From Williamsia serinedens (lineage in GTDB: Bacteria > Actinomycetota > Actinomycetes > Mycobacteriales > Mycobacteriaceae), in NCBI RefSeq assembly GCF_024171725.1, contig NZ_JAMTCG010000006.1, forward strand, positions 186,001 to 250,000: a stretch of 64,000 nt of DNA. The letters run 5' to 3'. Positions within the stretch are counted from its first letter, which is position 1. The number at the start of each line of letters is the position of its first letter. The notes beneath the pieces are model-generated. The model worked only from the letters and a program-made list of their open reading frames with translations, made no database searches and had not been told where the DNA came from. Positions 9,753 through 51,736 of this stretch are shown here, piece by piece. The position numbers were made by a program, and so were the translations under genes.

Positions 9753-11660
9753 ATGTCCATGGAGTCGGTCGCCTACAACACGATGTACCGCGGCCTGTCC
9801 GCCAGCCGGAAACCGTCGAAGCTGCCCAAGGGGACGCGACGGTCCACGGTGCGGCGGATCGCGGCCTTCGCGCGGCCGCACCGCCGCAAGATCGCGGTGT
9901 TCCTGGCACTGAGCGTCCTGACCGCCGTCCTCACGGTGGTCACACCGATCCTCGCCGGCCGAGTGGTCAACCAGATCACCGGTCACGGCTCGACGGCCAC
10001 CATCACCTGGCTCGCGCTGGTCATCGCCGGCGTCGCGCTCGCCGAGGCCGGCGTCGGGATCGTCGTACGGTGGCTGTCGGCGTCGATCGGCGAGGGACTC
10101 ATCCTCGACCTGCGGCGCACCGTCTACGACCACGTGCAGAAGATGCCCGTCGCGTTCTTCACCCGCACCCGGACCGGCGCCCTCGTCAGTCGGCTGAACA
10201 ACGACGTCATCGGCGCCCAGCGCGCGTTCTCCGACACCCTCTCCGGCGTCGTGTCGAACATCGTCACGCTGGCGTTGACCCTCACGACGATGCTGCTGAT
10301 CTCCTGGCAGATCACGCTTCTCGCGCTGGTGCTGCTGCCGGTGTTCGTCGTCCCGGCGCGGCTGATGGGCCGTCGGATGGCGGCGCTGTCGCGCCAGGCC
10401 GCCGAGTACAACGCCCAGATGTCGACGCAGATGACCGAACGCTTCTCCGCGCCCGGCGCCACCCTGGTCAAGCTGTACGGCCGGCCCGACGAGGAGTCGC
10501 GACGTTTCTCCGACCGCGCCGCCCAGGTCCGCGACGTCGGCGTCGCGCGCGCGATGTCGCAGTCGTATTTCGTCACGGCGCTGACACTCGTCTCCGCGCT
10601 GGCGCTCGCCCTGGTCTACGGTCTCGGCGGGGTGCTCGCCGTCGACGGTCACCTGAACGCGGGCGCCGTGGTCTCCCTCGCGTTGCTGCTCACCCGGATG
10701 TACGCCCCGCTCACCGCGCTGGCCAACGCGCGCGTCGAGATCATGAGCGCCCTGGTCAGTTTCGAGCGCGTCTTCGAGGTGACCGACCTCGTCCCGCTCA
10801 TCGACGACAAGCCCGATGCGGTCGCGGTCCCCCAGGGCCCGCTGTCGATGCGCTTCGACGGGGTGCGCTTCGCCTACCCGTCGGCGGACAAGGTGTCGCT
10901 GGCATCGCTCGAGGAGGTCGCCGCGCTCGACACACGCGGTGGCGTCGAGGTGTTGCACGACATCTCCTTCGAGGTGCCGGCCGGTGAGATGGTCGCCCTC
11001 GTCGGCAGCTCCGGCGCCGGCAAGTCCACCATCGCGCAGCTCGCGACCCGGCTCTACGACGTCGACGCCGGGGCGGTGCGGGTGAACGACCTCGACGTCC
11101 GCGACGTGACGTCGGCGTCGCTGCACCGCGCAGTCGGTCTGGTGACCCAGGACGGCCACCTCTTCCACGACACGGTCCGCGCCAACCTCATGCTCTCCAA
11201 CCCGACCGCGACGGACGACGAGATCTGGGCGGCCCTTCGACGCGCCCGCCTCGACGAGTTGATCGCGTCGCTGCCCGACGGCCTCGACACCGTCGTCGGC
11301 GAGCGCGGCTACCGCCTGTCCGGCGGCGAGCGTCAACGACTGACCATCGCACGACTGCTCCTCGCGGCGCCGTCGGTCGTGATCCTCGACGAGGCGACGG
11401 CACACCTCGACTCGACGTCGGAAGCCGCTGTGCAGGAGGCGTTGTCCGAAGCTCTTGTCGGACGCACCTCGATCGTCATCGCACACCGCCTGTCGACGGT
11501 CCGCGCCGCCCACCAGATCCTGGTGTTGGAGGCCGGTCGGATCGTGGAGCGTGGGACGCACCTGTCGCTGCTGGCCCGCAACGGCCGCTACGCCGAGCTC
11601 TACCGCACCCAGTTCGCCGACGACCCCGACGCCCCGGCCGTCGCCGCCGCGCAGGTGTGA
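9753..11660 (+). CDS. ABC exporter, fused membrane and ATPase domains
   Basis: 635 residues. An N-terminal six-helix type IV exporter domain spans about 50-330 (VFLALSVLTAVLTVVTPILA, ITLLALVLLPVFVVPARLMG). The nucleotide-binding domain has Walker A GSSGAGKST (about 418), a glutamine loop LVTQDG, the signature LSGGERQR (about 523), Walker B VVILDEATAHLD and switch histidine IAHRLSTV. It is a half-transporter likely to act as a homodimer; no partner gene is nearby. These proteins export lipids, peptides or drugs, and the sequence alone does not say which. Two in-frame ATGs six bases apart are possible starts. The upstream gap also serves the divergent aldo/keto reductase. Confidence 0.94.
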   Translation: MSMESVAYNTMYRGLSASRKPSKLPKGTRRSTVRRIAAFARPHRRKIAVFLALSVLTAVLTVVTPILAGRVVNQITGHGSTATITWLALVIAGVALAEAGVGIVVRWLSASIGEGLILDLRRTVYDHVQKMPVAFFTRTRTGALVSRLNNDVIGAQRAFSDTLSGVVSNIVTLALTLTTMLLISWQITLLALVLLPVFVVPARLMGRRMAALSRQAAEYNAQMSTQMTERFSAPGATLVKLYGRPDEESRRFSDRAAQVRDVGVARAMSQSYFVTALTLVSALALALVYGLGGVLAVDGHLNAGAVVSLALLLTRMYAPLTALANARVEIMSALVSFERVFEVTDLVPLIDDKPDAVAVPQGPLSMRFDGVRFAYPSADKVSLASLEEVAALDTRGGVEVLHDISFEVPAGEMVALVGSSGAGKSTIAQLATRLYDVDAGAVRVNDLDVRDVTSASLHRAVGLVTQDGHLFHDTVRANLMLSNPTATDDEIWAALRRARLDELIASLPDGLDTVVGERGYRLSGGERQRLTIARLLLAAPSVVILDEATAHLDSTSEAAVQEALSEALVGRTSIVIAHRLSTVRAAHQILVLEAGRIVERGTHLSLLARNGRYAELYRTQFADDPDAPAVAAAQV

Positions 11661-12705: not shown

Positions 12706-14400
12706 TCAGCGGGGGTTGACCAGCAGCAGTTCGACGTTGTGGTCGGCGGCTCCGCCGAGGCGTTTGGCCTCGTATCCGATGTCGTTGTAGGAGAACTCGC
12801 GGTACATCGACGCCAGGCCGGTGATCGAGTGGTCGGCGTAGTCGACCGAGTACGGCGCTGCCGACTCGATCAGCGTGCAGAACAGCGACAGCGTGCCGTC
12901 CTTGTTGTCGCACACCTCGAGGATCCGCGCGTTCTGCGGGAAGTCGATGTGCGACGCGGTGTTGATCTCCCAGAAGCTCTGCGCCGGAGTGGGTCCCACG
13001 TGCGGGGTGATCCTGTTCTCGTGGGTGTGCCCGTTCACCCACGCGACGACGTTCGGGAACCGGTGGAAGAAGTCGACGAGCTGCTTCCCGGTCCGTCGCG
13101 GCTCCAGGGGCCGTTCGGGGTCGGGGATCGGCAGTTCCATGGTGTCGCTGGTGTGGTGACTGAACGCGACGAACAGCGTGTCCCGATTCGTGGTGATCAG
13201 CCGCTGCATCCAGTCGAGCTGACCCTGCCCGATCGACCCATCGGTGAACCCGGCGTGGTTCGTCGTGTCCATCGACAGCCCGACCACGCCGGGCGCGATC
13301 TCGAACGAGTAGTACGTGACCCCCGATTGCGGTGCATCTGCGGCGAATCCGTGTCCGACGGGACCGGGTCCGGTGTAGCGCGGTCGGAAGTGCTCGGCCA
13401 TGTACTGCCGCGGCGTGAACGGCGCGCGGCGGGCGTCGGGGGTGACCTTGCGGATCGGCCCGGACGCGACCTGCGCGGCGAACACCTTCCCGGCCTCGCG
13501 CGGGTCGACGCCGAACACGCGTGCCATGGCGTCGATCTGACGTCGGTCCTGGGGGAGGTCGAGCTTGATGTCGCCGGTGTACAGCGCGTCGATGAACCCG
13601 ATGCCGCTGGGGAGCGTGCCCTCGACACTGTCGTCGTGGTTGCCGAACACGCTGTACCACCGGGTGTTCAGGCCGGGACTCTCGATCGACCGGATGCTCG
13701 ACGAGAGCAGCCCGGGCACCTGCGGGAAACCCTTCTGCTTGTAGATGTCGTCCACCGCGGTCTCCGGCTGCCAGTACAGGGTCGAGCCCCAGACCTGGAC
13801 GCCCTCGTACCGGTTCGGGTCACCGGTCGACGGCTGGAACGTCCCACCCGAGAACACGGTGAGGAACCAGTCGAGCTCGGCGAACTCGTGGTTGTCGGTG
13901 TTGTCGCCGGTGGACACGACCGCGTCGAACCGACGCCCGGTGAACGGCGACGACCCCAGGGCGTTGATGCGCTCGACGAGGGTGATCGCGCCATGCGGGC
14001 CGAGCTTCTCGTGGGGCCGGAACGCCGAGCCGTTCTGCAGGTGGATGAACTCGGCGCGGACCGGGCTCTCGGCGTCGACGATGTGGATGTCGGTGGTCTG
14101 CACGACGGAGGCGAGGCCGACACGGCGGTCGTCGCGACCGGCCTTCGGCGCCGCGAGCTCGGACCGCACGATCAACGGCCATCCCGCCCCGGCGACGAGC
14201 TTCCGGTACTGCTTGGGCCCGGTCGCGGCCGGGACGCCGACGACGTCGAGCGTGGTCCCCGCGATCGACGCCGCCCGCGACACCGCCGGCTCGGCCCAGG
14301 CGAACGGCGACAGCTTCGTGCCCAGGTACGCCGCGGCGGCGCCGATCCCGGTCGCCTTCACGAATGTGCGGCGGTCGAACGTCCTGCGCCTGCGGTCCAT
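12706..14400 (-). CDS. Tat-exported metallophosphoesterase
   Basis: 564 residues from the ATG beginning MDRRRRTFDRRTFVKATG. A twin-arginine motif (DRRTFVK) plus a short hydrophobic run predicts export by Tat. The calcineurin-like fold is shown by TDIHIVDAESP, VVSTGDNTDNHEFAELDW (metal-binding GDxxD variant), YSVFGNHDDS (GNHD), LFVAFSHHTSD and AWVNGHTHENRI (GHxH). It fits the actinobacterial TIGR03767-type metallophosphoesterase family. The location suggests phosphate or phospholipid hydrolysis outside the membrane; the substrate is unknown. It lies 80 bp behind the TetR gene on the same strand but may have its own promoter. Confidence 0.9.
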   Translation of the reverse strand: MDRRRRTFDRRTFVKATGIGAAAAYLGTKLSPFAWAEPAVSRAASIAGTTLDVVGVPAATGPKQYRKLVAGAGWPLIVRSELAAPKAGRDDRRVGLASVVQTTDIHIVDAESPVRAEFIHLQNGSAFRPHEKLGPHGAITLVERINALGSSPFTGRRFDAVVSTGDNTDNHEFAELDWFLTVFSGGTFQPSTGDPNRYEGVQVWGSTLYWQPETAVDDIYKQKGFPQVPGLLSSSIRSIESPGLNTRWYSVFGNHDDSVEGTLPSGIGFIDALYTGDIKLDLPQDRRQIDAMARVFGVDPREAGKVFAAQVASGPIRKVTPDARRAPFTPRQYMAEHFRPRYTGPGPVGHGFAADAPQSGVTYYSFEIAPGVVGLSMDTTNHAGFTDGSIGQGQLDWMQRLITTNRDTLFVAFSHHTSDTMELPIPDPERPLEPRRTGKQLVDFFHRFPNVVAWVNGHTHENRITPHVGPTPAQSFWEINTASHIDFPQNARILEVCDNKDGTLSLFCTLIESAAPYSVDYADHSITGLASMYREFSYNDIGYEAKRLGGAADHNVELLLVNPR

Positions 14401-14480
14401 GGGTGTCCCTCTCGTCTGACGGACACAGCCCCGGTGTGCCCAGGGGGATACTGCCCTACCTCCGGGCCGATCGTCGGCGA

Positions 14481-15050
14481 TCAGCGCACGCGGAGTCCGT
14501 CGAGCAGGACACCGACCATGCGACGGGCGTCGTAGCGGCTGTCCGTGCCGGCGCCGATGCACAGGCTGCCGACCCCGCGCATGACCTCGATGGCGCCGAC
14601 GTCGCCGCGGACGTCACCGGTCGCGACCGCCGCCTGCAGGATCTGGTCGCAGACCGGCACGAGACGGTCCAGGAACCAGGAGTGCAGGCCCTCGAACGCG
14701 GCGTCGTCGGACCGCATCGCCTCGGCGAGTCCGTGTTTGGTGACGAGGAAGTCGACGAACTGGTCGATCCATCGGACGAGTGCCGTGTGCGGCGACGGGC
14801 TGTCGCCCAGCAGCCGCGGACCGGCCTCCACGAGCGCCTCCACCTGATGCCGGTAGACGGCGACGATCAGGTCGGTCCGGGTCGGGAAGTGCCGGTAGAT
14901 GGTTCCGACACCCACGCCCGCCCGGGCCGCGACGTCCCGGACCGGCACGCCGACACCGGACTCGACGAACGCAGCCGCGGCGGCGTCGACGAGAGCGTCG
15001 GCGTTGCGACGCGCATCGGCTCGCTTGCGCGGTGGCGGTTCGCCGGTCAT
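14481..15050 (-). CDS. TetR-family repressor
   Basis: 189 residues from the ATG beginning MTGEPPPRKRADARRN, preceded by GAGAGGACAGGG; a longer frame upstream runs through the operator region and is unlikely. The helix-turn-helix is clear at about 30-70 (VPVRDVAARAGVGVGTIYRHFPTRTDL). The ligand-binding C-terminal part is all helical. It is divergent from the aldo/keto reductase at 15190, and two GGAAC-type palindromes in the gap are the likely operators, so it probably represses itself and the AKR/F420-oxidoreductase pair. Confidence 0.93.
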   Translation of the reverse strand: MTGEPPPRKRADARRNADALVDAAAAAFVESGVGVPVRDVAARAGVGVGTIYRHFPTRTDLIVAVYRHQVEALVEAGPRLLGDSPSPHTALVRWIDQFVDFLVTKHGLAEAMRSDDAAFEGLHSWFLDRLVPVCDQILQAAVATGDVRGDVGAIEVMRGVGSLCIGAGTDSRYDARRMVGVLLDGLRVR

Positions 15051-17846: not shown

Positions 17847-18019
17847 GGGCGCCACCCTAGCGACACCGTCCACGGCAACCCCCTCATGCCCGATCACGCC
17901 GAAAAGCGGATCTTTCCGACAATGCCTCACGCCGAGTCATTTAGTGCCCCTAACATACGGACACCCTCCTTGCGGTGGCCGACCCGGCGCCGCGGTCCGT
18001 CGAGAAAGGTCCCCACTCC

Positions 18020-19096
18020 ATGACATCGTCGACTCGTGTGCTGGGTGCAGTGATCGCATGCGCCCTGGCCGTCGGGCTCACCACCGCGCTCGGATCGGCA
18101 GCGCACGCCGCGCCCGCCGATCCCGCGGTCCCCCACAAGAAGCTCGCGTTGCGGGACGGGACGCTCGACATCCGGCGCGGACACGCCGCGCGTTCCGCAC
18201 CGCAGGCGACCACAGCGACCGTGCCGTCGTACACGACGACGAACGTGGACGCGACCACGAAGAAGTCGTACACAGCACACTTCGTCGGCGCCGCCCCGTC
18301 GGCGAACACGACCTCGACGGTCACCGTGAACATCGTCCCGCTGAACTTCAGCTTGGCGAACTCGAACGGCACCACGACCGCCGTCGACGCGACTGCAGCC
18401 GCGAAGTCCGTCGCCGCCAGCCCGATGTTCACGAACGCCACGACGAAACCCGCCGGCGAGACCACGCAGTACCTCGACGCCTACGTCCGGGCGAACGCGA
18501 ACAAGGTCGGGTCCGCCTACCACCTTCTCCTCAACCCCGTGGTGAGTTCACCTGTCTCCGTGTCGGTCCCGTCCGGTCAGTGGAAGCAGGTGGGTGGTGA
18601 GTACGGTGTGCTCGACACGACCATCGAGAACGCGGTGACCTCGAACGGCGTCTCCGGTCGCTACCCCGCGACGCAGCTCACGATGTTCGTCGCCCCCGAC
18701 GTCTACGGCGACGACGGTTCCTTCACCGGCAGTGGGTTCGGCGGGTACCACGACCAGAGCGGCAACTACACGTTCGGCTACAGCGACGTCGAGGGCGGGA
18801 ACACCAACCTGCAGGCCTTCTCGCACGAGATATCGGAGTGGGCGATGGACCCGTTCGTCGGCAGCAGCCAGATCAACCAGGTGCCCGGCGCCTCGGTGTC
18901 GGGGTACGGATGCCTGACGAACCTCGAGGTGGGTGACCCGGTCTACACGTCGACCTTCACCCAGACCGTCGGGGCGACCACGTGGACGCTCGAGGACGAG
19001 GTCTACGTGCCGTGGTTCTTCCACACCTCGCCGTCGACGTCGTACGGGAAGAAGTACTCCCTGCTGGGGATCTCCTCGCCCGCGGCGGCCTGCTGA
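18020..19096 (+). CDS. secreted protein with HExxE motif, EXORDIUM-like
   Basis: 358 residues from the ATG in MTSSTRVLGAVIACALAVG, with AGAAAGG as ribosome site. A Sec signal peptide ends at AAHA-AP (about residue 30). The mature protein is rich in Thr, Ser, Asn and Gly. AFSHEISEWAMDP near residues 266-278 (H269, E270, E273) resembles the HELAExxTNP segment of plant EXORDIUM (phosphate-induced 1) proteins and their bacterial relatives, where a zincin-like role has been suspected. The run of Tyr/Gly (GFGGYHDQSGNYTFGYSD) just before it is also in keeping with that group. Activity is unproven; a metalloprotease is possible. It ends 18 bp from a convergent acyl-CoA dehydrogenase gene. Confidence 0.75.
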   Translation: MTSSTRVLGAVIACALAVGLTTALGSAAHAAPADPAVPHKKLALRDGTLDIRRGHAARSAPQATTATVPSYTTTNVDATTKKSYTAHFVGAAPSANTTSTVTVNIVPLNFSLANSNGTTTAVDATAAAKSVAASPMFTNATTKPAGETTQYLDAYVRANANKVGSAYHLLLNPVVSSPVSVSVPSGQWKQVGGEYGVLDTTIENAVTSNGVSGRYPATQLTMFVAPDVYGDDGSFTGSGFGGYHDQSGNYTFGYSDVEGGNTNLQAFSHEISEWAMDPFVGSSQINQVPGASVSGYGCLTNLEVGDPVYTSTFTQTVGATTWTLEDEVYVPWFFHTSPSTSYGKKYSLLGISSPAAAC

Positions 19097-22764: not shown

Positions 22765-22803
22765 CCCAGCATGATCCCATCGGCGGTGTCGACCGGGGGC
22801 GTG

Positions 22804-24141: not shown

Positions 24142-27100
24142 GTGGACGTCACCGCCACACCGTCGCGACACCCGGCACCGTCGGAGCCCGGTCCTCCCGC
24201 ACCACCGCAGTTCCTGGCCTCGGCGTCGGCACCGGCGCCGCGGACACTGATCGACGTCCTGCGCGAGACGGCGCAGGCGCATCCGCAGGCCGCCGCGGTC
24301 GACGACGGTGAGGCCGTCCTGAGCTACGCCGAACTCCTCGAGGCGGTCGAGGAGGGCGCGTCGTGGATGGCGGCGCAGGGCATCACCCGCGGCGACCGCA
24401 TCGGCATCCGCATGCCGTCGGGGTCGCGGTCGCTGTACCTGTCGATCCTGTCGACGCTCGCCGCGGGCGCCGCCTACGTGCCCGTCGACGTCGACGACCC
24501 CGACGAGCGCGCCGATCTGGTGTTCGGCGAGGCCGGTGTCGCGGCCGTCGTCGACGCGAACGGCCTGCACCGGTCACAGTCGGTGCGCGACCGCGTGGTC
24601 CCGGCGGACGTCGCCACCTCCGACCTGGCGCCCACCCCCGCCGACGACGCCTGGGTCATCTTCACCTCGGGATCGACCGGGACACCGAAAGGTGTTGCGG
24701 TCACCCATCGCAACGCGGCCGCCTTCGTCGACGCCGAGGCACGGATGTTCCTCCGCGACGACCCCATCGGCCCCGGCGACCGTGTGCTCGCCGGCCTGTC
24801 GGTGGCGTTCGACGCGTCGTGCGAGGAGATGTGGTTGGCCTGGCGCCACGGCGCGTGTCTCGTGCCCGCACCGCGCTCGCTGGTCCGCAGCGGCATGGAC
24901 CTCGGACCGTGGCTCGTCGCCCGCGACATCACCGTCGTCTCCACCGTCCCGACGCTGGCAGCGCTGTGGCCGGCCGAGGCCCTCGAGGCCGTGCGGCTGC
25001 TCATCTTCGGCGGCGAGGCGTGCCCACCCGAGCTCGGTGAGCGCCTGGCCGTGCCCGGCCGCGAGGTGTGGAACACCTACGGCCCCACCGAGGCGACGGT
25101 CGTCGCGTGCGCGGCGCCGTTGACCGGGCGGGGACCGGTGCGCATCGGGCTGCCCCTCGACGGGTGGGACCTCGCCGTGGTCGATCCCTCCGGCCGGCCC
25201 GTCGCCGAGGGCGAGACCGGGGAGCTGGTCATAGGTGGTGTCGGTCTCGCGCGCTACCTCGACCCGGCCAAGGACGCCGAGAAGTACTCGCCCATGCCGA
25301 CGCTGGGGTGGGATCGCGCGTACCGCAGCGGCGACCTCGTCCGACTGGAGCCCGAGGGGCTGGTGTTCGCCGGGCGTGCCGACGACCAGGTCAAGGTGGG
25401 TGGTCGCCGGATCGAACTCGGCGAGATCGACAACGCGCTGCAGCACCTGCCGGGTGTCGGCGGCGCGGCCGCCGCGGTCCGGAAGACCGCCGCCGGGAAC
25501 TCGCTCCTCGTGGGTTACCTGGTCTCCACCGACCCCGACTTCGACGTAGACGCCGCGCACGATCTACTCGTCGAGCAGCTCCCCGCGGCCATGGTCCCCC
25601 GACTCGCCCTTGTCGACGAGTTGCCCACCCGCACGTCGGGCAAGGTCGACCGGGCGGCACTTCCCTGGCCCCTCCCGGGACCGGCCGGCGGCGACGGCGA
25701 CGACGACCTCACCGCGACCGAGCGGTGGGTCGCCGACCGCTGGACCGCTGTGCTGGGTGTGACGATCGCCGCCGCCGACGTCGACTTCTTCGCCGAGGGT
25801 GGCGGCTCGCTGGCCGCGGCCCAGCTCGTCACCGCGCTGCGGGAGCGCTACCCGGAGGTCACCGTCGCCGACCTCTACGACCACCCCCGTCTCGGGGCGC
25901 TCGCCGAGATGCTCGACGACACGAGCCCGCAGACGAGCGCGGTCGAGGCCCGCGACGTCACCCCGACGCCGAGGCGAGCGGGGATCGCGCAGATCCTGCT
26001 GTCGGTGCCGCTGACCACCCTCACCGGTCTGCAGTGGGCGACGTGGCTGGGCGTCGCGAACAACGTGGCCGCCCAGCTCACCGACGTCCCGTGGCTGATC
26101 TCGGTGAACTGGTGGGTGCTGCTGGTCGCGTTCGTCGTGTTCATCACGCCGGTCGGCCGGATGGCCATCGCGGTGGCGGGGTGTCGCCTGCTGCTCGCCG
26201 GCGTGCGGCCCGGTCGGCATCCGCGCGGCGGCGGGGTGCACCTGCGCCTGTGGGTGGCCGAGCGGCTCACCGAGGCCAGCGGCGCCGCCAACCTCGCCGG
26301 TGCCCCCTGGATGATCTACTTCGCCCGCGCGCTCGGCGCGGAGATCGGCCACGGCGTCGACCTGCACACCCTCCCGCCGGTCACCGGGATGCTCACGCTC
26401 GGCGACGGCTCGTCCGTCGAACCCGAGGTCGACCTCGCGGGCTGGTGGATCGACGGGGACGTCGTGCACATCGGGGACATCGAGATCGGCGAACGCGCCA
26501 CCGTCGGTGCGCGGTCGACACTGCTGCCCGGCGCGCGCGTCGGCCGCGACGCCGTCGTCGACCCCGGGTCCGCCGTGATCGGCAAGGTGAAGGCGCGCCA
26601 GCGGTGGGCGGGGTCGCCCGCGGTCAAGATCGGCAAGGCGACCACGCACTGGCCCACCGAGCGGCCACCGCGTCGGAGCTGGTGGGTCCCCGTGTACGGC
26701 CTGTCGTCGGTGGTCCTGGCCGGGGTGCCGCTGGTGGCGTTGGCCGCCGGGCTGGGGGTCATCGCGAGCTGGGCGATCCACGCCGACCGGCTCCGCGACG
26801 TCGCCCTGCGTGCACTGATCCTGCTGCCGGCGGCCACCGTCGTCAGCCTCCTGGTGTTCGCGGCGATCACCGCACTCGGTGTGCGGGCGCTGTCGATCGG
26901 TCTGCGGCAGGGGTACCACCCGGTGCGGTCGCGGATCGGGTGGCAGGTCTGGGCCACCGAACGCCTCATGGACTCCGCGCGCACCTACCTGTTCCCGCTC
27001 TATGCGAGCCTGCTCACGCCGGTCTGGTTCCGACTGCTCGGCGCCGACATCGGCAAGGGCACCGAGATCAGCACGGCACTGGTCATCCCGAAGTTCACCT

Positions 27101-28065
27101 CGGTCGGCGACGGCGCGTTCCTCGCCGACGACACGATGGTCGCCTCCTACGAGCTCGGCGGCGGCTGGGTGCACATCGACGAGGCGCGGATCGGCAAGCG
27201 CGCCTTCCTCGGCAACTCCGGGATGACCGGCCCGGGGCGCAAGGTCCCGAAGAACAGCCTCGTCGCGGTGCTGTCGGCGACGCCCGACAAGGCGAAGTCC
27301 GGGACGAGTTGGCTCGGCAGCCCGCCCGTGCGGCTGCGCCGCGCCGTCGCCGACACCGACAGCTCGCGCACCTTCGACCCGCCGCGGCGACTGAAGGTGG
27401 CGCGCGCCGCCGTCGAGACCCTGCGCCTGATCCCCGTGATGATCAGCTTCGGGCTCGGACTCTTCGTCCTGATCGGCCTGCAGTACATCGCGTCGCAGTC
27501 GGCGTTCTGGGTGGCCGGTCTCGTCAGCGGACTGGTGCTGCTGGTCGCCGGCGCCTCGGCCTGCTGCATCGCCGCGGCCGCCAAATGGGCGGTCGTCGGG
27601 CGCATCTCGGCGGGTGAACACCCGCTGTGGAGTTCGTTCGTGTGGCGCAACGAGCTGTCGGACGCGTTCGTCGAGACCGTCGCGGCCCCGTGGTTCGCCA
27701 ACGCCGCGACCGGCACGCCGATCCTGAACCTGTGGCTGCGCATGCTCGGCGCGACGATCGGTCGGGGCGTCTGGTGCGAGACCTACTGGCTGCCCGAGGC
27801 CGACCTCGTGACGCTCGGCGACGGCGCCACCGTCCAGCGCGGCTGCGTCGTGCAGACACACCTCTTCCACGACCGCGTGATGGCGATGGACTCCGTCACC
27901 GTGGCGGCCGGGGCGACGCTCGGCCCGCACTGCGTCGCACTCCCGGCCTCGGGGCTCGGCGAGTCGGCCACCGTGGGTCCGGCGTCGTTGGTGATGCGCG
28001 GTGACGTCGTGCCGGCGCACACCCGATGGCAGGGCAATCCCATCGCGCCCTGGTCGGGGCGGTGA
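24142..28065 (+). CDS. Pls-type membrane nonribosomal peptide synthetase
   Basis: 1307 residues from GTG 24142, chosen for its GGAAAGGA ribosome site; ATG 24076 is possible. Adenylation domain about 40-505: FTSGSTGTPKG (about 171), FDASCEEMW (about 224), YGPTEATV (about 313), SGKVDR (about 499). Carrier domain about 515-590 with FFAEGGGSLAA as pantetheine site. No condensation or thioesterase domain follows. Instead there are three membrane helix pairs (about 615-690, 847-923, 1093-1153) alternating with three soluble domains with left-handed beta-helix, acyltransferase-like repeats. This is the layout of epsilon-poly-lysine synthetase Pls. Aligned to PheA, the ten specificity residues read D-A-E-S-I-G-T-V-V-K, close to a lysine code remembered from BacB (DAESIGSVCK). 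A homopolymer of lysine or another basic amino acid is inferred. Confidence 0.85.
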   Translation: MDVTATPSRHPAPSEPGPPAPPQFLASASAPAPRTLIDVLRETAQAHPQAAAVDDGEAVLSYAELLEAVEEGASWMAAQGITRGDRIGIRMPSGSRSLYLSILSTLAAGAAYVPVDVDDPDERADLVFGEAGVAAVVDANGLHRSQSVRDRVVPADVATSDLAPTPADDAWVIFTSGSTGTPKGVAVTHRNAAAFVDAEARMFLRDDPIGPGDRVLAGLSVAFDASCEEMWLAWRHGACLVPAPRSLVRSGMDLGPWLVARDITVVSTVPTLAALWPAEALEAVRLLIFGGEACPPELGERLAVPGREVWNTYGPTEATVVACAAPLTGRGPVRIGLPLDGWDLAVVDPSGRPVAEGETGELVIGGVGLARYLDPAKDAEKYSPMPTLGWDRAYRSGDLVRLEPEGLVFAGRADDQVKVGGRRIELGEIDNALQHLPGVGGAAAAVRKTAAGNSLLVGYLVSTDPDFDVDAAHDLLVEQLPAAMVPRLALVDELPTRTSGKVDRAALPWPLPGPAGGDGDDDLTATERWVADRWTAVLGVTIAAADVDFFAEGGGSLAAAQLVTALRERYPEVTVADLYDHPRLGALAEMLDDTSPQTSAVEARDVTPTPRRAGIAQILLSVPLTTLTGLQWATWLGVANNVAAQLTDVPWLISVNWWVLLVAFVVFITPVGRMAIAVAGCRLLLAGVRPGRHPRGGGVHLRLWVAERLTEASGAANLAGAPWMIYFARALGAEIGHGVDLHTLPPVTGMLTLGDGSSVEPEVDLAGWWIDGDVVHIGDIEIGERATVGARSTLLPGARVGRDAVVDPGSAVIGKVKARQRWAGSPAVKIGKATTHWPTERPPRRSWWVPVYGLSSVVLAGVPLVALAAGLGVIASWAIHADRLRDVALRALILLPAATVVSLLVFAAITALGVRALSIGLRQGYHPVRSRIGWQVWATERLMDSARTYLFPLYASLLTPVWFRLLGADIGKGTEISTALVIPKFTSVGDGAFLADDTMVASYELGGGWVHIDEARIGKRAFLGNSGMTGPGRKVPKNSLVAVLSATPDKAKSGTSWLGSPPVRLRRAVADTDSSRTFDPPRRLKVARAAVETLRLIPVMISFGLGLFVLIGLQYIASQSAFWVAGLVSGLVLLVAGASACCIAAAAKWAVVGRISAGEHPLWSSFVWRNELSDAFVETVAAPWFANAATGTPILNLWLRMLGATIGRGVWCETYWLPEADLVTLGDGATVQRGCVVQTHLFHDRVMAMDSVTVAAGATLGPHCVALPASGLGESATVGPASLVMRGDVVPAHTRWQGNPIAPWSGR

Positions 28066-28158: not shown

Positions 28159-28575
28159 CTAGGTGCGCGCGCGGCGGCGGTTGAGCAGGTATCCGTCGAC
28201 ACCGGTCCGGCCGGTGTTCACCAGGCCGACCGCGACGAGGGCGGCGATGAGGGCGAGCGGGAACTCGTAGCCACCGTCGCTGTTCCAGAAGCCCTTGTCG
28301 GCGTGGACGGTGATGATCGCGCCGGCCATGTCGACGATGAGCAGGATCGAGACGAGCGGGACCAGCACGCCGACGATGAGCAGGATGCCGCCGACGAACT
28401 CGACCCACGTGGCGTAGTGCGCGCTGAACTCGGGGAACGGCACGTCCATGGCCCGGAATCCCTTCTCGGTGGCCGAGATCCCGTTGGTGTGCAGCTTCTG
28501 CCACCCGTGCATGATGAAGATGATCCCGAGGATCACGCGGGCGACCAGTGACGTGAGACTCCGTGACGAATCCAT
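28159..28575 (-). CDS. DoxX family membrane protein
   Basis: 138 residues with four predicted membrane helices: LVARVILGIIFIMHGWQKL near the N-terminus (the HGWQK motif is typical of DoxX), VGGILLIVGVLVPLVSILLI in the middle, and LIAALVAVGLVNTG near the end. DoxX proteins are small quinone-related membrane proteins. In mycobacteria a relative works with superoxide dismutase and a thiosulfate-linked protein, but none of those genes is adjacent here. The role is therefore open. It is convergent with the synthetase gene and divergent from the M1 peptidase. Confidence 0.88.
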   Translation of the reverse strand: MDSSRSLTSLVARVILGIIFIMHGWQKLHTNGISATEKGFRAMDVPFPEFSAHYATWVEFVGGILLIVGVLVPLVSILLIVDMAGAIITVHADKGFWNSDGGYEFPLALIAALVAVGLVNTGRTGVDGYLLNRRRART

Positions 28576-28793: not shown

Positions 28794-30161
28794 GTGCCGG
28801 GCAAGTCCCACAAGCATGGTTCGGCCACGACCGGCGGGCCCCTTCTCGGTGACCCCACCGACGGCATCGACCCCTACCTGCCCGGCAACGGCAACCTCGG
28901 TTACCGCGTCAGCCGCTACGAGCTGGACCTCGAGTACAAGGTCGCCAGCAACCGACTGTCCGGCACGGCGACGCTGACCGCGACGGCCATCGCGCACGTC
29001 GGCCGGTTCACGGTCGACCTGGCGAGCCACCTGTCGGTGTCGAAGGTGAGCGTCAACGGGTCCCGCCCGTCGCGGTACACGCACCGGTCGGGGAAGCTGT
29101 CGATCACCCCGGCGCACGCACTGCCGCCGGGTGCGGCCATGACCGTCGAGATCAAGTACGGCGGGTCGCCCCGGCCCATCCGCGGGCCGTGGGGCGAGGT
29201 CGGCTTCGAGGAACTGACCGAGGGTGCGCTCTGTGCGAACCAGCCCAACGGCGCAGCGTCGTGGTTCCCCTGCGACGACCACCCGGCGTCGAAGGCGTCG
29301 TACCAGATCGCGATCACCACCGAGTCGCCGTACACGGCCGTCGCGAACGGCACGCTCGTCCGCAAGCGCACCAAGGCCGCGATGACGACCTGGGTGTACG
29401 AGCAGGTGGAGCCGATGGCCACCTACCTCGCGACCGTCTCGATCGGGCCATACGAGAAGAAGTCGTTGGCGCGCAAGCCCGTACCGATCTGCGCGGTGCT
29501 CCCGTCGCGACTCACCGACACGTTCGCGCACGACTTCGGTCGCCAGCGCGAGATGATGACCGCGTTCTGCGACATGTTCGGGCCCTACCCCTTCCCCGAG
29601 TACACCGTCGTGGTCACCGACGACAACCTCGAGATCCCGATCGAGGCGCAGGGGATGTCGACGTTCGGCGCCAACCACTGCGACGGTCGCCGCGGGTCGG
29701 AGCGACTGGTCGCCCACGAACTCGCCCACCAGTGGTTCGGCAACTCCCTGACCCTCACCCGCTGGCGCGACATCTGGCTGCACGAGGGGTTCGCCTGCTA
29801 CAGCGAGTGGTTGTGGGCTGAACGGGCCGGCGACGACACCGCCGACGCGCTGGCGAGGTCACACCACAAGCGGCTCGCGTCGCAGCGCCAGGACCTGCTG
29901 CTGTCCGATCCCGGCGCCGAGAAGATGTTCGACGACCGCGTCTACAAGCGTGGCGCACTGACGCTGCACGCGCTGCGGCTGACCATCGGCGACGACGCGT
30001 TCTTCGACCTGCTGCGCGACTGGACGCACGAGTACCGGTACAGCTCGGTCACCACCGACGACTTCGTCGGGGTGGCGGCCCGCCACACGGACCTGTCGCT
30101 GACGGAGTTGTGGGACGCCTGGCTGCACTCGACGCCGCTGCCGGATCTTCCCGACGCCTGA
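28794..30161 (+). CDS. M1-family metallopeptidase
   Basis: 455 residues from a GTG with GGAGGA as ribosome site. The M1 zinc site is intact: HELAHQWFGN and, 18 residues on, WLHEGFACYSEW supplying the third ligand Glu. The GAMEN-type exopeptidase loop appears as EAQGMSTFG, that is AQGMS replacing GAMEN. At about 455 residues it holds the N-terminal beta domain and catalytic domain but not the long C-terminal helical domain of pepN. No signal peptide is seen; the N-terminus is hydrophilic. Aminopeptidase activity on peptides is expected, specificity unknown. Confidence 0.92.
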   Translation: MPGKSHKHGSATTGGPLLGDPTDGIDPYLPGNGNLGYRVSRYELDLEYKVASNRLSGTATLTATAIAHVGRFTVDLASHLSVSKVSVNGSRPSRYTHRSGKLSITPAHALPPGAAMTVEIKYGGSPRPIRGPWGEVGFEELTEGALCANQPNGAASWFPCDDHPASKASYQIAITTESPYTAVANGTLVRKRTKAAMTTWVYEQVEPMATYLATVSIGPYEKKSLARKPVPICAVLPSRLTDTFAHDFGRQREMMTAFCDMFGPYPFPEYTVVVTDDNLEIPIEAQGMSTFGANHCDGRRGSERLVAHELAHQWFGNSLTLTRWRDIWLHEGFACYSEWLWAERAGDDTADALARSHHKRLASQRQDLLLSDPGAEKMFDDRVYKRGALTLHALRLTIGDDAFFDLLRDWTHEYRYSSVTTDDFVGVAARHTDLSLTELWDAWLHSTPLPDLPDA

Positions 30162-30907: not shown

Positions 30908-31528
30908 TCAGTCGACCGCGATGCTTCGCAAGAATTCCGTGACCGACTCGGCGGTCGGTAACGATCCGGACTCGCGCGCCTGCGACAGCGTCGGGGCCGC
31001 GGTGTCCTTCTCCGACAGGCGGAACTCGAGGGCCGACCCGTCGCGGGCCGTCGTGGGCCAGGTGATCCCGACCTCGGGGTCGAGCGGGTGGATCCCGTGT
31101 TCGCCGCTCGGGTTGTAGCCGGTGGAGCAGAGGTAGGTCACGGTGCTGTCGTCCTCGAGGGCGCAGAACGCGTGCCCCAACCCCTCGGAGAGGAAGATCG
31201 CCCGCCGGTCGGTGTCGTCGAGGAGAACCGAGTCCCATTGCCCGAACGTCGGCGATCCGACGCGGATGTCCACGACGACGTCGAGCACGGCCCCGCGTGG
31301 GCACACGACGTACTTCGCCTGACCCGGAGGCACATCGGCGAAGTGCACACCCCGCAGCGTCCCCGCCGCGGACACCGACAGGTTGACCTGGGCGAGGTCG
31401 AGTCGTCGCCCGGTCGCCTGCTGCAGTGCGTCGGCCTTGAAGGCCTCGAGGAAGACACCGCGCGGATCACCGAACTGGCGCGGGGTGACCTCCCAGGCAC
31501 CGTCGATCGACAGCGGGCGGATCTCCAC
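30908..31528 (-). CDS. rmlC: dTDP-4-dehydrorhamnose 3,5-epimerase
   Basis: 206 residues from a GTG, 3 bp after rmlA. A cupin fold with FGDPRGVFLEAFKAD at the front, LRGVHFADVPPGQAKYV carrying the catalytic His and substrate Arg/Lys positions, FLSEGLGHAFCALEDD, and TGYNPSGEHGIHPLDPEVGI near the end with the conserved Tyr. It converts dTDP-4-keto-6-deoxyglucose to the rhamno form in dTDP-rhamnose synthesis. In mycolata rhamnose joins arabinogalactan to peptidoglycan, so this is envelope metabolism. No rmlD is visible in the window. Confidence 0.95.
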   Translation of the reverse strand: MEIRPLSIDGAWEVTPRQFGDPRGVFLEAFKADALQQATGRRLDLAQVNLSVSAAGTLRGVHFADVPPGQAKYVVCPRGAVLDVVVDIRVGSPTFGQWDSVLLDDTDRRAIFLSEGLGHAFCALEDDSTVTYLCSTGYNPSGEHGIHPLDPEVGITWPTTARDGSALEFRLSEKDTAAPTLSQARESGSLPTAESVTEFLRSIAVD

Positions 31529-31531
31529 GCC

Positions 31532-34118
<2,587 letters not shown>

Positions 34119-35826: not shown

Positions 35827-37674
35827 ATGACAACGTCGGTTGGTGTGGTTTTGGCGGCACCGGGGTCCGAAGGCGGCGGCGCGGCGCTCGATCAGGTCTT
35901 CGGTATGAGCGCGGCCGCCGCCGTCGTCTCGTTGGCCCTGCTGTGGATCGGCTGGCGCCACCGCACCCGCAGGATCACGTGGCTCTCCCGGCTCGGCGCC
36001 TGGGCCGGACGGATCGTCAACCGTCCCGGGTGGGCGGCGCTGCCCGTCGGCATGTTCATCTCGACGATCGTCTGCGCCCTGTTCGGTTTCCTCTGGGACG
36101 TCAGCCTGCACGTCGGCAAGGGCCGCGACGCCGGGCCCCTGGCGAACCCGGCCCACTACTTCATCCTCGTGGGCCTGTTCTTCCTCTTCATCGCGGGGAT
36201 GCTGTCGATCTTCCTGCCGTACGAGCGGCCCGGACGTGCGGCCATCCGCATCACCCGCCGGTGGTACGCGCCCGTCGGTGGCGTGCTGCTCGCCGGATGC
36301 GGGCTCTACGCACTCATCGGGTTCCCGCTCGACGACATCTGGCACCGCATCTTCGGTCAGGACGTCACCCTGTGGGGGCCCACGCACCTCATGCTCATCG
36401 GTGGCGCGGGCATGTCGTTGATGGCGCTGCTGCTCCTCGAGCGCGAGGGGCGATCGGCGATGGGCGACGCCGCCCCGAAGGACTCCCGCGGGGTGTGGCT
36501 GATGCGCTGCACCGCGTTCGGCGGACTCGTCATCGGTCTGTCGGTGTTCCAGATCGAGTACGACTTCGGCGTCGAGCAGTTCCGACTGGTGTTGCAGCCG
36601 ATGATGATCGCGGGCGCCGCGGCGTTCGCTCTCGTCGCCGCCCGCATCACCCTCGGGCCGGGTGCCGCGCTGATCGCCGCTGTCTCGGCCGCTCTCATCC
36701 GTGGCGCCGTGGCGCTCGTCGTGGGCCCCGGGCTGGGCGCACCGATCAACTTCTTCGCCCTGTACGTCGGCCCGGCCCTGGTCGTCGAACTCATCGCGCT
36801 GACACCCCTGATCCGACGCCCGGTCCTCTTCGGCGCTGTCGCGGGGCTGGGCATCGGCACCGTCGGCCTCTGGCTGGAGTCGTTCTGGATCGACGGCGTC
36901 TACCACTACCCGTGGCCTCGCAGCATGTGGGGCGAGGCGCTCGCCATGGCCGTCCCCGTCGCCGTCGGCATGGGTGTGTGCGGCGCCCTGATGGGCATCG
37001 TCCTCACCGGGAACCGTCTGCCACGGCCGAAGCTCGCCGGCGTCGCGGTGGCGGTCACCGTCCTGATCATCGGCGGTGCCGTCGCGAACGGCCTGCGCGT
37101 CGACGTCCCCGCCGACGCCCGCGCGTCGATGACCCTGACGCCGGCGGCGTCGGTGGACGGCGAGACCCGCGCCACGGCCGTCGTCGCCATCTCCCCCACC
37201 GACCTCGTCTCCGACGACCCCGAGTGGGTGACGATCCTGTCCTGGCAGGGCGGCCTCGACAAGTCCCGCGGGCTGCTCATCGACCCGCTCGAGAAGATCG
37301 GACCCGGGCTCTACCGGTCGACGCAGTCGTTCCCGACGTCCGGCTCGTGGAAGACCCTGCTGCGCGTCCAGGACGGGACGACGATGACCGCCGTGCCGAT
37401 CTACCTGCCGGCCGATCCCGGCATCGGCGCGCAGGAGGTGACGGCCGACCCCCAGATGACCCGACCGTTCGTCAAGGAGATCACGATCCTCCAGCGCGAG
37501 AGGACGTTCGACTACCCCAGCTGGCTGTACGGCGCCGCGTCCCTGGTGGTGCTGGTGTGCTCGATCATCCTCATCACGGCGCTGGCGTGGGGCGCCGCGC
37601 GGATCAACCGCGCCGACGCCGCGGGGGTCCGCGCCCGGGACACCGAGCCCGAGCCGGTCGAGCCGCGCACGTGA
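35827..37674 (+). CDS. large polytopic membrane protein of unknown function
   Basis: 615 residues. About ten hydrophobic helices fill residues 25-430 (LPVGMFISTIVCALFGFLWD, AHYFILVGLFFLFIAGMLSI, LWGPTHLMLIGGAGMSLMAL and others). A soluble external domain follows at about 440-560 (ADARASMTLTPAAS, FPTSGSWKTLLRVQDG), then one last helix (about 568-592) and an acidic tail. Conserved-looking His and Trp residues occur within helices (HVGKG, GPTHLM, YHYPWPRS). I do not recognise the family. The stop codon overlaps the next start (GTGA), so the three genes from here to 39187 are translationally coupled and probably form one complex. Confidence 0.8.
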   Translation: MTTSVGVVLAAPGSEGGGAALDQVFGMSAAAAVVSLALLWIGWRHRTRRITWLSRLGAWAGRIVNRPGWAALPVGMFISTIVCALFGFLWDVSLHVGKGRDAGPLANPAHYFILVGLFFLFIAGMLSIFLPYERPGRAAIRITRRWYAPVGGVLLAGCGLYALIGFPLDDIWHRIFGQDVTLWGPTHLMLIGGAGMSLMALLLLEREGRSAMGDAAPKDSRGVWLMRCTAFGGLVIGLSVFQIEYDFGVEQFRLVLQPMMIAGAAAFALVAARITLGPGAALIAAVSAALIRGAVALVVGPGLGAPINFFALYVGPALVVELIALTPLIRRPVLFGAVAGLGIGTVGLWLESFWIDGVYHYPWPRSMWGEALAMAVPVAVGMGVCGALMGIVLTGNRLPRPKLAGVAVAVTVLIIGGAVANGLRVDVPADARASMTLTPAASVDGETRATAVVAISPTDLVSDDPEWVTILSWQGGLDKSRGLLIDPLEKIGPGLYRSTQSFPTSGSWKTLLRVQDGTTMTAVPIYLPADPGIGAQEVTADPQMTRPFVKEITILQRERTFDYPSWLYGAASLVVLVCSIILITALAWGAARINRADAAGVRARDTEPEPVEPRT

Positions 37675-37871
37675 TCCTCGCGACGCACTCGCTGCTGCTG
37701 GCACTGCCCGCGTTCGTCCCGGCCGTGTTGCTGGTGGGGGTCATCGTGACCGTCGCCGTGCGGGACCGCCGGCGTGGCGACGACGACGGCGAGGAACTGC
37801 CGCTCGAGGACTGGGGCGGTGGTCGCGACACGCTGTCCGACGCCGATCCCGACCTCGACGACCGACGATGA
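37671..37871 (+). CDS. single-helix small membrane protein
   Basis: 66 residues from a GTG that overlaps the preceding stop codon by 4 bp. One membrane helix (about 6-29, LLLALPAFVPAVLLVGVIVT) is followed by a basic stretch (RDRRRG) and a very acidic tail (DDDGEELPLEDWGGG). The last 4 bp overlap the next gene's ATG. It may be an assembly or accessory subunit for the flanking polytopic proteins. No family recognised. Confidence 0.75.
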   Translation: MILATHSLLLALPAFVPAVLLVGVIVTVAVRDRRRGDDDGEELPLEDWGGGRDTLSDADPDLDDRR

Positions 37872-39187
37872 GCGACACCACCGTCGTAGCGCATGGGCTG
37901 GGCGCGGAGTACCTCCCTCTGCCCTACACCTACGCGTTGATCGGCGGGGCGTGGGCGCTCACCGCGTCGTTCGCGATCGTGGCGTTCGCATGGAGGACAC
38001 CCAAGCTCGACCCCTCCCGGGGCGGGATCGCGCTGCCGCGGTGGGTGACCCGCGCGGTCGACAACCGCGGGGTGCGGCGGACGGTCGCACTCCTCGCCCT
38101 GGTGGTCACCGTCTGGGTGGGCGTGGCCGCGGTCGCCGGACCCGACGACGCCGAGTCGAACCCGCTGCCGGGGGTGTTCTACGTCCTGCTGTGGGTGGGC
38201 GTCGTCGTCCTGTCGGTACTCGTCGGGCCCGTGTGGCGCGTTCTCTCGCCGCTGCGGACCCTCACCGCGCGGGCCCGGCGACGAGCCCCACGCTCCTACC
38301 CCGCCGCCTGGGGCCACCGGCCCGCCGCCCTGGGGTTGTTCACGTTCGTGTGGCTGGAACTCGCATCCCCTGACCCGGACTCCGTTCTGGCCGTGCGCAT
38401 CTGGCTCGCGGCGTACGTCGGGGTGCTGCTGCTCGGTTGGTGGTTCGTCGGCGATCGCTGGTTCGCCCGCGCCGACCCGTTCGAGACCTACAGCCTCGTG
38501 GCGTCACGCCTGGCTCCGTTCCGCCGGGACCCCGACACCCGCCGGGTCGTGTTGGGGAACCCGCTCGCCCACCTGACGACACTCCCGCGCCGGCCGGGGA
38601 TGGTGACCGTGATGGCGGTGCTGTTGGGGTCGACGGCATTCGACAGTTTCTCGTCGTTCCCCCTGTGGCGCCGATGGATCGACGACCTCGGGGAGGGATC
38701 GGCCGGCGCGACGCTGGTGTCCACGGCCGCGCTGCTCGTCTTCATCGGCGTGGTCGCGGGGACGTTCTGGGTCGCGACCCGTGCGACCGGGGGCGTGACG
38801 CGGGCGCAGCGTGCCGAGTTGCCCGGGCGGATGGCGCACACCCTGATCCCGATCGTGGTGGGGTACATCCTCGCCCACTATCTGAACTACATCGTCGAGC
38901 GCAGTCAGGCTGTGATCGCGCAGCTCGGCGATCCGCTCGGCCGCGGGTGGAACGTGCTGTGGCTGAGTGACATCCACCCCGAGTACGTCCTGACGGAGCA
39001 CCCGACGGTGTCATCGACGCTGAAACTGGTGTTCGTGGTCGGCGGCCATATCGCCGCGGTGGTCAGCGCCCACGACGCGTCTCTACGCCTGCTGCCCCGT
39101 CGACATCGTCTGACGGGGCAGCAGGCGCTGATGCTCACGATGGTGGCCTACACGTTCCTGGGGCTGTATCTCCTGTTCGGCGGTTGA
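37868..39187 (+). CDS. polytopic membrane protein of unknown function
   Basis: 439 residues, ATG overlapping the previous TGA. About nine membrane helices (YALIGGAWALTASFAIVAFAW at the front, LMLTMVAYTFLGLYLLFGG at the end). Motifs such as ESNPLPGVFYVLLWVG, GDRWFARADPFETYS and HYLNYIVERSQAVIAQLGDP look conserved. Similar actinobacterial proteins have, as I remember, been labelled fenitrothion hydrolase, but that label is weakly founded and I would not transfer it. Third gene of the coupled operon; it ends 7 bp from the convergent NDH-2 remnant. Confidence 0.8.
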   Translation: MSDTTVVAHGLGAEYLPLPYTYALIGGAWALTASFAIVAFAWRTPKLDPSRGGIALPRWVTRAVDNRGVRRTVALLALVVTVWVGVAAVAGPDDAESNPLPGVFYVLLWVGVVVLSVLVGPVWRVLSPLRTLTARARRRAPRSYPAAWGHRPAALGLFTFVWLELASPDPDSVLAVRIWLAAYVGVLLLGWWFVGDRWFARADPFETYSLVASRLAPFRRDPDTRRVVLGNPLAHLTTLPRRPGMVTVMAVLLGSTAFDSFSSFPLWRRWIDDLGEGSAGATLVSTAALLVFIGVVAGTFWVATRATGGVTRAQRAELPGRMAHTLIPIVVGYILAHYLNYIVERSQAVIAQLGDPLGRGWNVLWLSDIHPEYVLTEHPTVSSTLKLVFVVGGHIAAVVSAHDASLRLLPRRHRLTGQQALMLTMVAYTFLGLYLLFGG

Positions 39188-51660: not shown

Positions 51661-51736
51661 TGGAGCCGCCTGCGAGAATCGAACTCGCGACCTTTTCATT
51701 ACGAGTGAAGCGCTCTACCGACTGAGCTAAGGCGGC
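51661..51736 (-). tRNA. tRNA-Thr (anticodon CGT)
   Basis: Read on the minus strand from 51736, a full cloverleaf is seen: acceptor GCCGCCT pairing with AGGCGGC, D arm GCTC/GAGC, anticodon loop CTCGTAA (anticodon CGT, codon ACG), T arm GCGAG-TTCGATT-CTCGC, and an encoded 3' CCA after discriminator T. The first anticodon-stem pair is a C-A mismatch. M. tuberculosis has its CGT threonine tRNA (thrV) in the same place beside the holB homologue. Confidence 0.97.

What the first reader, a model, noticed from the sequence alone, without database searches (positions are those of the whole stretch)
24142..28065. Pls-type membrane peptide synthetase with a lysine-like specificity code
The protein has one adenylation and one carrier domain, then three membrane helix pairs alternating with three beta-helix acyltransferase-like domains, and no condensation or thioesterase domain. 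This is the layout of epsilon-poly-L-lysine synthetase. Aligning core regions by eye to PheA gives specificity residues D-A-E-S-I-G-T-V-V-K, close to the BacB lysine code I remember. A mycolic-acid actinobacterium could therefore make an isopeptide homopolymer of lysine or a related basic amino acid, with a possible envelope or antimicrobial role. No polymer-degrading gene is adjacent.
Basis: partly seen in the sequence, partly recalled or inferred. Interest (0 to 1): 0.82.

Follow-up and report, generated by a model that had tools for sequence, protein, structure and literature searches.

The report
Polylysine synthetase with partner peptidase

Summary
The reading of the protein holds. Window 24142-28065 (+) encodes a 1307-aa Pls/PosA-family synthetase: adenylation domain, carrier domain, then three membrane-helix pairs alternating with three left-handed beta-helix domains. 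Its specificity code, DAESIGTVVK, is identical to that of the solved epsilon-poly-lysine synthase adenylation domain 7WEW, at 66% identity. It falls in a DAESIGTVV clade, apart from members with other codes.

One statement is wrong. A co-oriented M1-family metallopeptidase gene lies at 28794-30161, separated from pls only by a small DoxX gene on the other strand. It is the counterpart, by position and homology, of the gene behind pls in Streptomyces (pldII, which degrades the polymer). Of 59 other order genomes with a strong family match, 59 carry it, 58 within 2.3 kb behind pls.

Functional Pls in a mycolic-acid bacterium is already published (Corynebacterium variabile, PMC8117764), so this is a new member of a known kind. 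One point may be new: seven Streptomyces partner peptidases carry an export signal, while this one and 81 of the other 82 score clearly without one.

The parts
24142..28065 (+). pls: epsilon-poly-L-lysine synthetase, 1307 aa (Pls/PosA family)
   Evidence: TIGR02353 763.8 bits, cut-off 423.1; single match in own genome; best solved relative 7wew, E 1.5e-194
24235..25665 (+). adenylation domain (residues about 32-508), lysine-type pocket
   Evidence: PF00501 and TIGR01733; 327 of 492 residues identical to 7WEW
24811..25104 (+). span holding nine of the ten specificity positions (residues 224-321): D224 A225 E228 S267 I288 G290 T312 V320 V321; tenth is K501
   Evidence: alignment to 7WEW, code identical; 77 of 98 residues identical over this span
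25723..25914 (+). carrier (PCP) domain, attachment Ser556 in GGGSL
   Evidence: PF00550; Ser in 117 of 117 aligned loci
25972..26193 (+). membrane helix pair 1 (residues 611-684)
   Evidence: AlphaFold2 model helices; only the second helix passes the hydropathy threshold
26338..26637 (+). beta-helix domain C1 (residues about 733-832)
   Evidence: structural matches to hexapeptide acetyltransferases, Z up to 15.2; PF00132
26683..26895 (+). membrane helix pair 2 (residues 848-918)
27043..27336 (+). beta-helix domain C2 (residues about 968-1065)
27385..27594 (+). membrane helix pair 3 (residues 1082-1151)
27748..28050 (+). beta-helix domain C3 (residues about 1203-1303), with H1240 and D1244 kept across the family
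   Evidence: H1240 and D1244 in at least 99% of 105 loci and at least 90% of 17 paralogues with other codes
28794..30161 (+). pldII-like M1-family metallopeptidase, 455 aa, HELAH zinc motif present, no export signal found
   Evidence: PF01433 104.9 bits, PF17900 50.3 bits; linkage; motif and N-terminus
28159..28575 (-). DoxX-family membrane protein gene between pls and the peptidase gene (not thought to be part of the pathway)
   Evidence: PF07681; a homologue lies between the two genes in 6 of 7 other genomes of the genus, and none was found in the stretches of 13 genomes outside it

Best explanation
The gene encodes an epsilon-poly-L-lysine synthetase of the Pls family, and the M1 peptidase gene behind it encodes its pldII-type degrading partner. 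[quoted passage not shown] albulus Pls in PMC9205021, inferred here). H1240 and D1244 in the third beta-helix domain are my candidates for its catalytic residues (inference from conservation). The peptidase most likely limits or recycles the cationic polymer. Since no export signal was found, it probably does so inside the cell, unlike the PldII of Streptomyces albulus, which is reported outside the membrane.
For: Family score far above cut-off. Code identical to the solved Pls adenylation domain. DAESIGTVV at the first nine positions in 8 of 8 loci of the genus (window included), 29 of 29 best order loci and 79 of 80 named loci, while of 20 further family loci of the order 17 carry DFE- or DGES-type codes, two carry DAESIGTVV and one has no adenylation domain. 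Tree of 93 rows: 76 DAES rows split from 17 DFE/DGES rows, SH-aLRT 100; the 76 include Streptomyces sp. MspMP-M5 (L058), 92% identical to 7WEW. Carrier Ser and A10 Lys in 117 of 117 loci. The C-terminal model has the architecture published for PosA (PMC10522769, section 13 read). Peptidase linkage: 19 of 20 sampled genomes; 69 of 80 named loci, of the 11 others three having no downstream DNA and one 619 bases; 58 of 59 other order genomes with a strong family match. In the family, 24 of 24 other genomes with a match have the peptidase, and the five listed without a match lack it at E 1e-60. In L058 the two genes overlap by GTGA, as the 4-base overlap reported for S. albulus pls-pldII (PMC4361855, passages read). 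Purifying selection.
Against: No product is shown. C. variabile made no detectable polymer in its own host or in C. glutamicum, only in S. coelicolor (PMC8117764). A specificity code does not prove substrate. In this genus the peptidase gene is no longer next to pls because of the DoxX gene, and seven named loci (four Kitasatospora, two Streptomyces, one Kocuria) have pls with downstream DNA but no M1 match; G088 has it on another contig. The activity of the M1 homologues outside Streptomyces is untested. S. albulus pldII itself was not fetched: that it is an M1 peptidase is inferred from position and overlap in L058, and PMC9223678 (passages read) models it with two zinc ions, which I recall as unusual for M1. 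The own genome holds two further M1 genes elsewhere.
Confidence: 0.87

Rival explanations
1. The enzyme makes an isopeptide polymer of another basic amino acid (ornithine, diaminobutyrate, beta-lysine).
For: Relatives with other codes make such polymers (PMC10522769, parts of Results and the Discussion read); the order holds such paralogues.
Against: Position 2 is Ala, which goes with lysine, where PosA has Met and the diaminopropionate/diaminobutyrate types have Phe (PMC10522769); code identical to 7WEW; the tree separates the code groups.
Confidence: 0.06
2. The enzyme is a polylysine synthetase, but its polymer is chiefly an internal or envelope-bound cation that is turned over in the cytoplasm, not a secreted antibiotic.
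For: Present in 8 of 8 genomes of the genus, so more like a core gene than a strain-specific antibiotic; 82 of 89 pls-linked peptidases, the window's included, fall below my export-signal threshold (one of them, L078, borderline).
Against: No direct evidence on where the polymer goes; the export test is a simple hydropathy scan; signal-less proteins can be exported by other routes; C. variabile Pls gave polymer in S. coelicolor culture extracts (PMC8117764).
Confidence: 0.2
3. The gene is silent or decaying and makes nothing.
For: Native C. variabile gave no detectable polymer and no detectable Pls protein (PMC8117764).
Against: Intact frame, key residues kept, dN/dS 0.070-0.169 within the genus.
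Confidence: 0.04

Closest known systems
Pls, epsilon-poly-L-lysine synthetase of Streptomyces albulus (7WEW: adenylation domain of an epsilon-poly-L-lysine synthase)
   Same: Domain order, identical ten-residue code, 66% identity over the adenylation domain; M1-type peptidase gene downstream, as in the close relative L058
   Different: Whole protein 54% identical to L058; DoxX gene between synthetase and peptidase; peptidase without the twin-arginine-like start seen in L058
Pls of Corynebacterium variabile (PMC8117764)
   Same: Coryneform (mycolic-acid, by general knowledge) actinobacterium, same family, pocket reported identical or highly similar to confirmed Pls, peptidase gene in the operon
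   Different: Sequence not fetched here, so not compared directly; product shown only by heterologous expression
Nocardia Pls homologues such as nfa3790 (PMC4035055)
   Same: Same module organisation; the seven Nocardia loci fetched here are 69-71% identical to the window protein, with the same code
   Different: Predicted only; nfa3790 itself was not fetched
PosA, delta-poly-L-ornithine synthetase of Acinetobacter baumannii (PMC10522769)
   Same: Same architecture, Asp and Glu at code positions 1 and 3
   Different: Published code DMEHNGTVSK, ornithine substrate; sequence not fetched in full

Membership tests
Pls/PosA family (TIGR02353) | C-terminal terminal-domain model over cut-off | tested here: met
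   763.8 bits against 423.1
Pls/PosA family (TIGR02353) | one adenylation and one carrier domain, no condensation or thioesterase domain | tested here: met
   six Pfam matches, none of them condensation or thioesterase; NCBIfam best 25 of 100
Pls/PosA family (TIGR02353) | six membrane helices in three pairs, three beta-helix domains | tested here: met
   model of residues 597-1307, pLDDT 89.8; hydropathy alone gave five helices
epsilon-poly-L-lysine synthetase (Pls) | lysine-type specificity code | tested here: met
   DAESIGTVVK in window and 7WEW
epsilon-poly-L-lysine synthetase (Pls) | placement with confirmed Pls rather than with synthetases of other polymers | tested here: met
   76-row group, SH-aLRT 100, quick method with long-branch warnings; confirmed Pls represented by a proxy, L058, 92% identical to 7WEW; the other polymers' confirmed enzymes were not in the tree, only loci with their type of code
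epsilon-poly-L-lysine synthetase (Pls) | activates L-lysine and makes epsilon-linked polymer | not testable with these tools
   needs assay and mass spectrometry
pls-pldII pair | peptidase gene downstream of pls | tested here: met
   M1 gene 728 bases downstream, co-oriented
pls-pldII pair | directly adjacent or overlapping genes | tested here: not met
   DoxX gene lies between in the window and in 6 of 7 other genomes of the genus
pls-pldII pair | peptidase exported to the outside of the membrane | tested here: inconclusive
   no hydrophobic N-terminus, best 12-residue hydropathy 0.07, but this is a simple hydropathy test

The most novel reading that the evidence does not exclude
Outside the S. 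albulus-type streptomycetes, and in this genus as a core trait, Pls works as half of an intracellular make-and-break pair: the polymer is trimmed or recycled by a co-inherited cytoplasmic M1 peptidase, so epsilon-poly-lysine there would be a regulated internal or envelope polymer and not mainly a secreted antibiotic.
Probability: 0.2. Interest if true: 0.5.

Novelty: new member of a known kind. Interest (0 to 1): 0.22.

Why it matters
It adds a clear Pls in a genus where all eight genomes searched carry the family and corrects the missing-partner claim. If the unexported peptidase really is cytoplasmic, the question of what epsilon-poly-lysine does for actinobacteria besides poisoning rivals becomes testable with simple knock-outs and fractionation. 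The conserved H1240 and D1244 give a concrete target for the unsolved condensation chemistry of the family.

Tried and rejected
Rejected: a degenerate exopeptidase motif in the M1 partner. A first by-eye alignment suggested that the GAMEN glutamate (motif recalled) was lost; the census of the region shows a glutamate followed by A-Q or N-Q in most members, which aligns better with that glutamate kept, so nothing is claimed. Rejected: the 1764-aa frame starting at 22771 as the true gene. Tried without use: a spacing check against PosA residue numbers, which did not fit because loop lengths differ; a Shine-Dalgarno pattern scan, 9 matches where shuffles gave 22; PDB sequence search of the C-terminal part, best E 0.0013; Rhodococcus inhibitor paper PMC6310278, no polylysine mentioned. 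The tenth code column was off by one and was corrected. The VIA rows cover mainly model residues 117-239, so the helix pairs and the second and third beta-helices were barely tested against known structures. Searches (listings seen) showed me no paper on a missing export signal of pls-linked peptidases outside Streptomyces; most subscription papers are not held, so this says little.

The tree used 37 of 80 named loci; the structure alignment used 40 of 74 usable relatives; dN/dS used five of the seven other genomes of the genus.
Full report
The observation. The frame 24142-28065 on the plus strand encodes 1307 residues. A GTG start with an AAAGGA stretch a few bases upstream fits. NCBIfam gives Pls/PosA family non-ribosomal peptide synthetase, 763.8 bits against a cut-off of 423.1, over residues 616-1301, and an adenylation domain over 61-443. 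Pfam gives six matches, among them AMP-binding, PP-binding and one hexapeptide repeat, and no condensation or thioesterase family. The own genome holds one match to the family.

Architecture. A model of residues 597-1307 from 41 sequences reached pLDDT 89.8 and pTM 0.89 and shows three helix pairs alternating with three runs of short strands. Foldseek and VIA-align match hexapeptide acetyltransferases such as serine acetyltransferase (best Z 15.2, 94 residues at 1.7 A, on the first beta-helix). This agrees with the published AlphaFold and RoseTTAFold models of PosA, where three beta-helices pack into one domain above the membrane helices (PMC10522769, section 13 read). A plain hydropathy scan found five of six helices.

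Specificity. The best solved relative is 7wew, epsilon-poly-L-lysine synthase. Aligned to it, 327 of 492 residues are identical and the ten code residues are the same, DAESIGTVVK; over residues 224-321, 77 of 98 are identical. The placing of the ten positions by PheA numbering is recalled, not computed on PheA. PMC10522769 (parts 2 and 3 of Results, section 13 and Discussion read) reports that the second position tracks chain length: Phe for the diaminopropionate and diaminobutyrate types, Met for ornithine, Ala for lysine. The window has Ala. In all, 8 of 8 loci of the genus (window included), 29 of 29 best loci of the order and 79 of 80 named loci have DAESIGTVV; among 20 further family loci of the order, 16 are DFE-type, one DGESVSVVN, two DAESIGTVV, and one has no adenylation domain.

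Phylogeny. In a 93-row tree, 76 DAES rows split from 17 DFE or DGES rows, SH-aLRT 100. The method was the quick one and the tool warned of long branches. The window groups with the seven other genomes of its genus (99), among rows of Rhodococcus, Nocardia and Mycobacterium. Streptomyces sp. MspMP-M5 (L058), 92% identical to 7WEW over the adenylation domain, is in the same 76-row group and stands in for the characterised enzyme. Confirmed enzymes for other polymers were not in the tree.

The missed partner. The gene at 28794-30161 (+) is an M1 metallopeptidase (PF01433 104.9 bits, PF17900 50.3 bits), with HELAH at 308-312 and a glutamate at 331; its nearest solved relative is a Deinococcus-type zinc metalloprotease entry, 6a8z, E 3.3e-53 (the source organism is recalled). 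A DoxX gene on the minus strand, 28159-28575, is the only gene that I recognise between it and pls. In 20 sampled genomes the peptidase follows pls in 19; the exception, G088, has it on another contig. A DoxX homologue lies between in 6 of the 7 other genomes of the genus, and none was found in the stretches of the 13 outside it, which suggests a later insertion. Among 80 named loci, 69 have the peptidase behind pls; of the 11 without, three have no downstream DNA and one 619 bases, and seven (four Kitasatospora, two Streptomyces, one Kocuria) lack it in the stretch held. Across the order, 59 of 60 typed peptidase matches lie downstream of a strong family match on the same strand, within 2.3 kb; all 59 other genomes with such a match have the peptidase, 58 of them there; none of the typed matches is in a genome without one. 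In the family, five genomes without a family match (G050, G059, G109, G116, G194) also lack the peptidase at 1e-60, and 24 of 24 others have both. The own genome has two further M1 genes elsewhere.

Link to pldII. In S. albulus, pldII overlaps pls by 4 bases and encodes the main degrading enzyme (PMC4361855, passages read), an aminopeptidase outside the membrane (PMC9223678, passages read). L058 shows the same kind of overlap, GTGA, and its downstream gene is the M1 homologue. I did not fetch S. albulus pldII itself, and the two zinc ions modelled in PMC9223678 do not fit M1 well as I recall that family.

Export. I scored the N-termini of 89 pls-linked peptidases (69 named, 19 unnamed, the window), trying every in-frame start up to 75 codons upstream of the core. 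Seven, all Streptomyces, have a twin-arginine-like hydrophobic start (hydropathy 1.62-1.88); one more Streptomyces is borderline (L078, 1.47). The other 81 score at most 1.3; the window scores 0.07. This is a simple test with a threshold of my own, not a trained predictor. It suggests that in this genus and its relatives the peptidase works in the cytoplasm.

Function. S. [quoted passage not shown] The elements for this are present: carrier Ser556 and A10 Lys501 in 117 of 117 loci. In the C-terminal module nine charged or polar residues are kept in at least 99% of 105 loci and at least 90% of 17 paralogues with other codes: R702, R964, D996, N1025, E1171, R1200, E1219, H1240 and D1244. I single out H1240 and D1244 because hexapeptide acyltransferases use a histidine (recalled). 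dN/dS is 0.070-0.169 for pls and 0.110-0.292 for the peptidase against five other genomes of the genus; outside the genus pls gave 0.205 and 0.355 and the peptidase 0.508.

What is known. [quoted passage not shown] PMC4035055 (one passage read) predicts Pls in Nocardia. The finding is therefore a new member of a known kind. The apparently unexported partner peptidase is the point that I would follow.

Noticed in passing
28159-28575 (-): DoxX-family gene between pls and its peptidase in 6 of 7 other genomes of the genus and in none of 13 sampled outside it.
   Followed up: partly
L058, L059, L061, L062, L063, L065, L066: Streptomyces pls-linked M1 peptidases have a twin-arginine-like start, unlike nearly all other pls-linked ones scored.
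   Followed up: partly
L140 (G118:C1:4442600-4449200): A paralogue with code DGESVSVVN, close to the DGESISVVNK reported for an epsilon-poly-beta-lysine synthetase (PMC10522769); the same genome has five family matches.
   Followed up: no
12706-14562 (-): TIGR03767-family metallophosphoesterase, 701.9 bits.
   Followed up: no
30908-33505: dTDP-sugar genes: RmlC-like and RmlA-like on the minus strand, divergent from an RmlB-like dehydratase, next to the pls locus and found in all 7 other genomes of the genus.
   Followed up: no
17975-19096 (+), 35827-37674 (+), 37868-39187 (+): One probably secreted and two probably membrane proteins (judged by eye) with no NCBIfam match at E 0.001.
   Followed up: no
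9831-9920 (+) and 51661-51736 (-): tRNA-Ala (cgc) and tRNA-Thr (cgt) genes.
   Followed up: no
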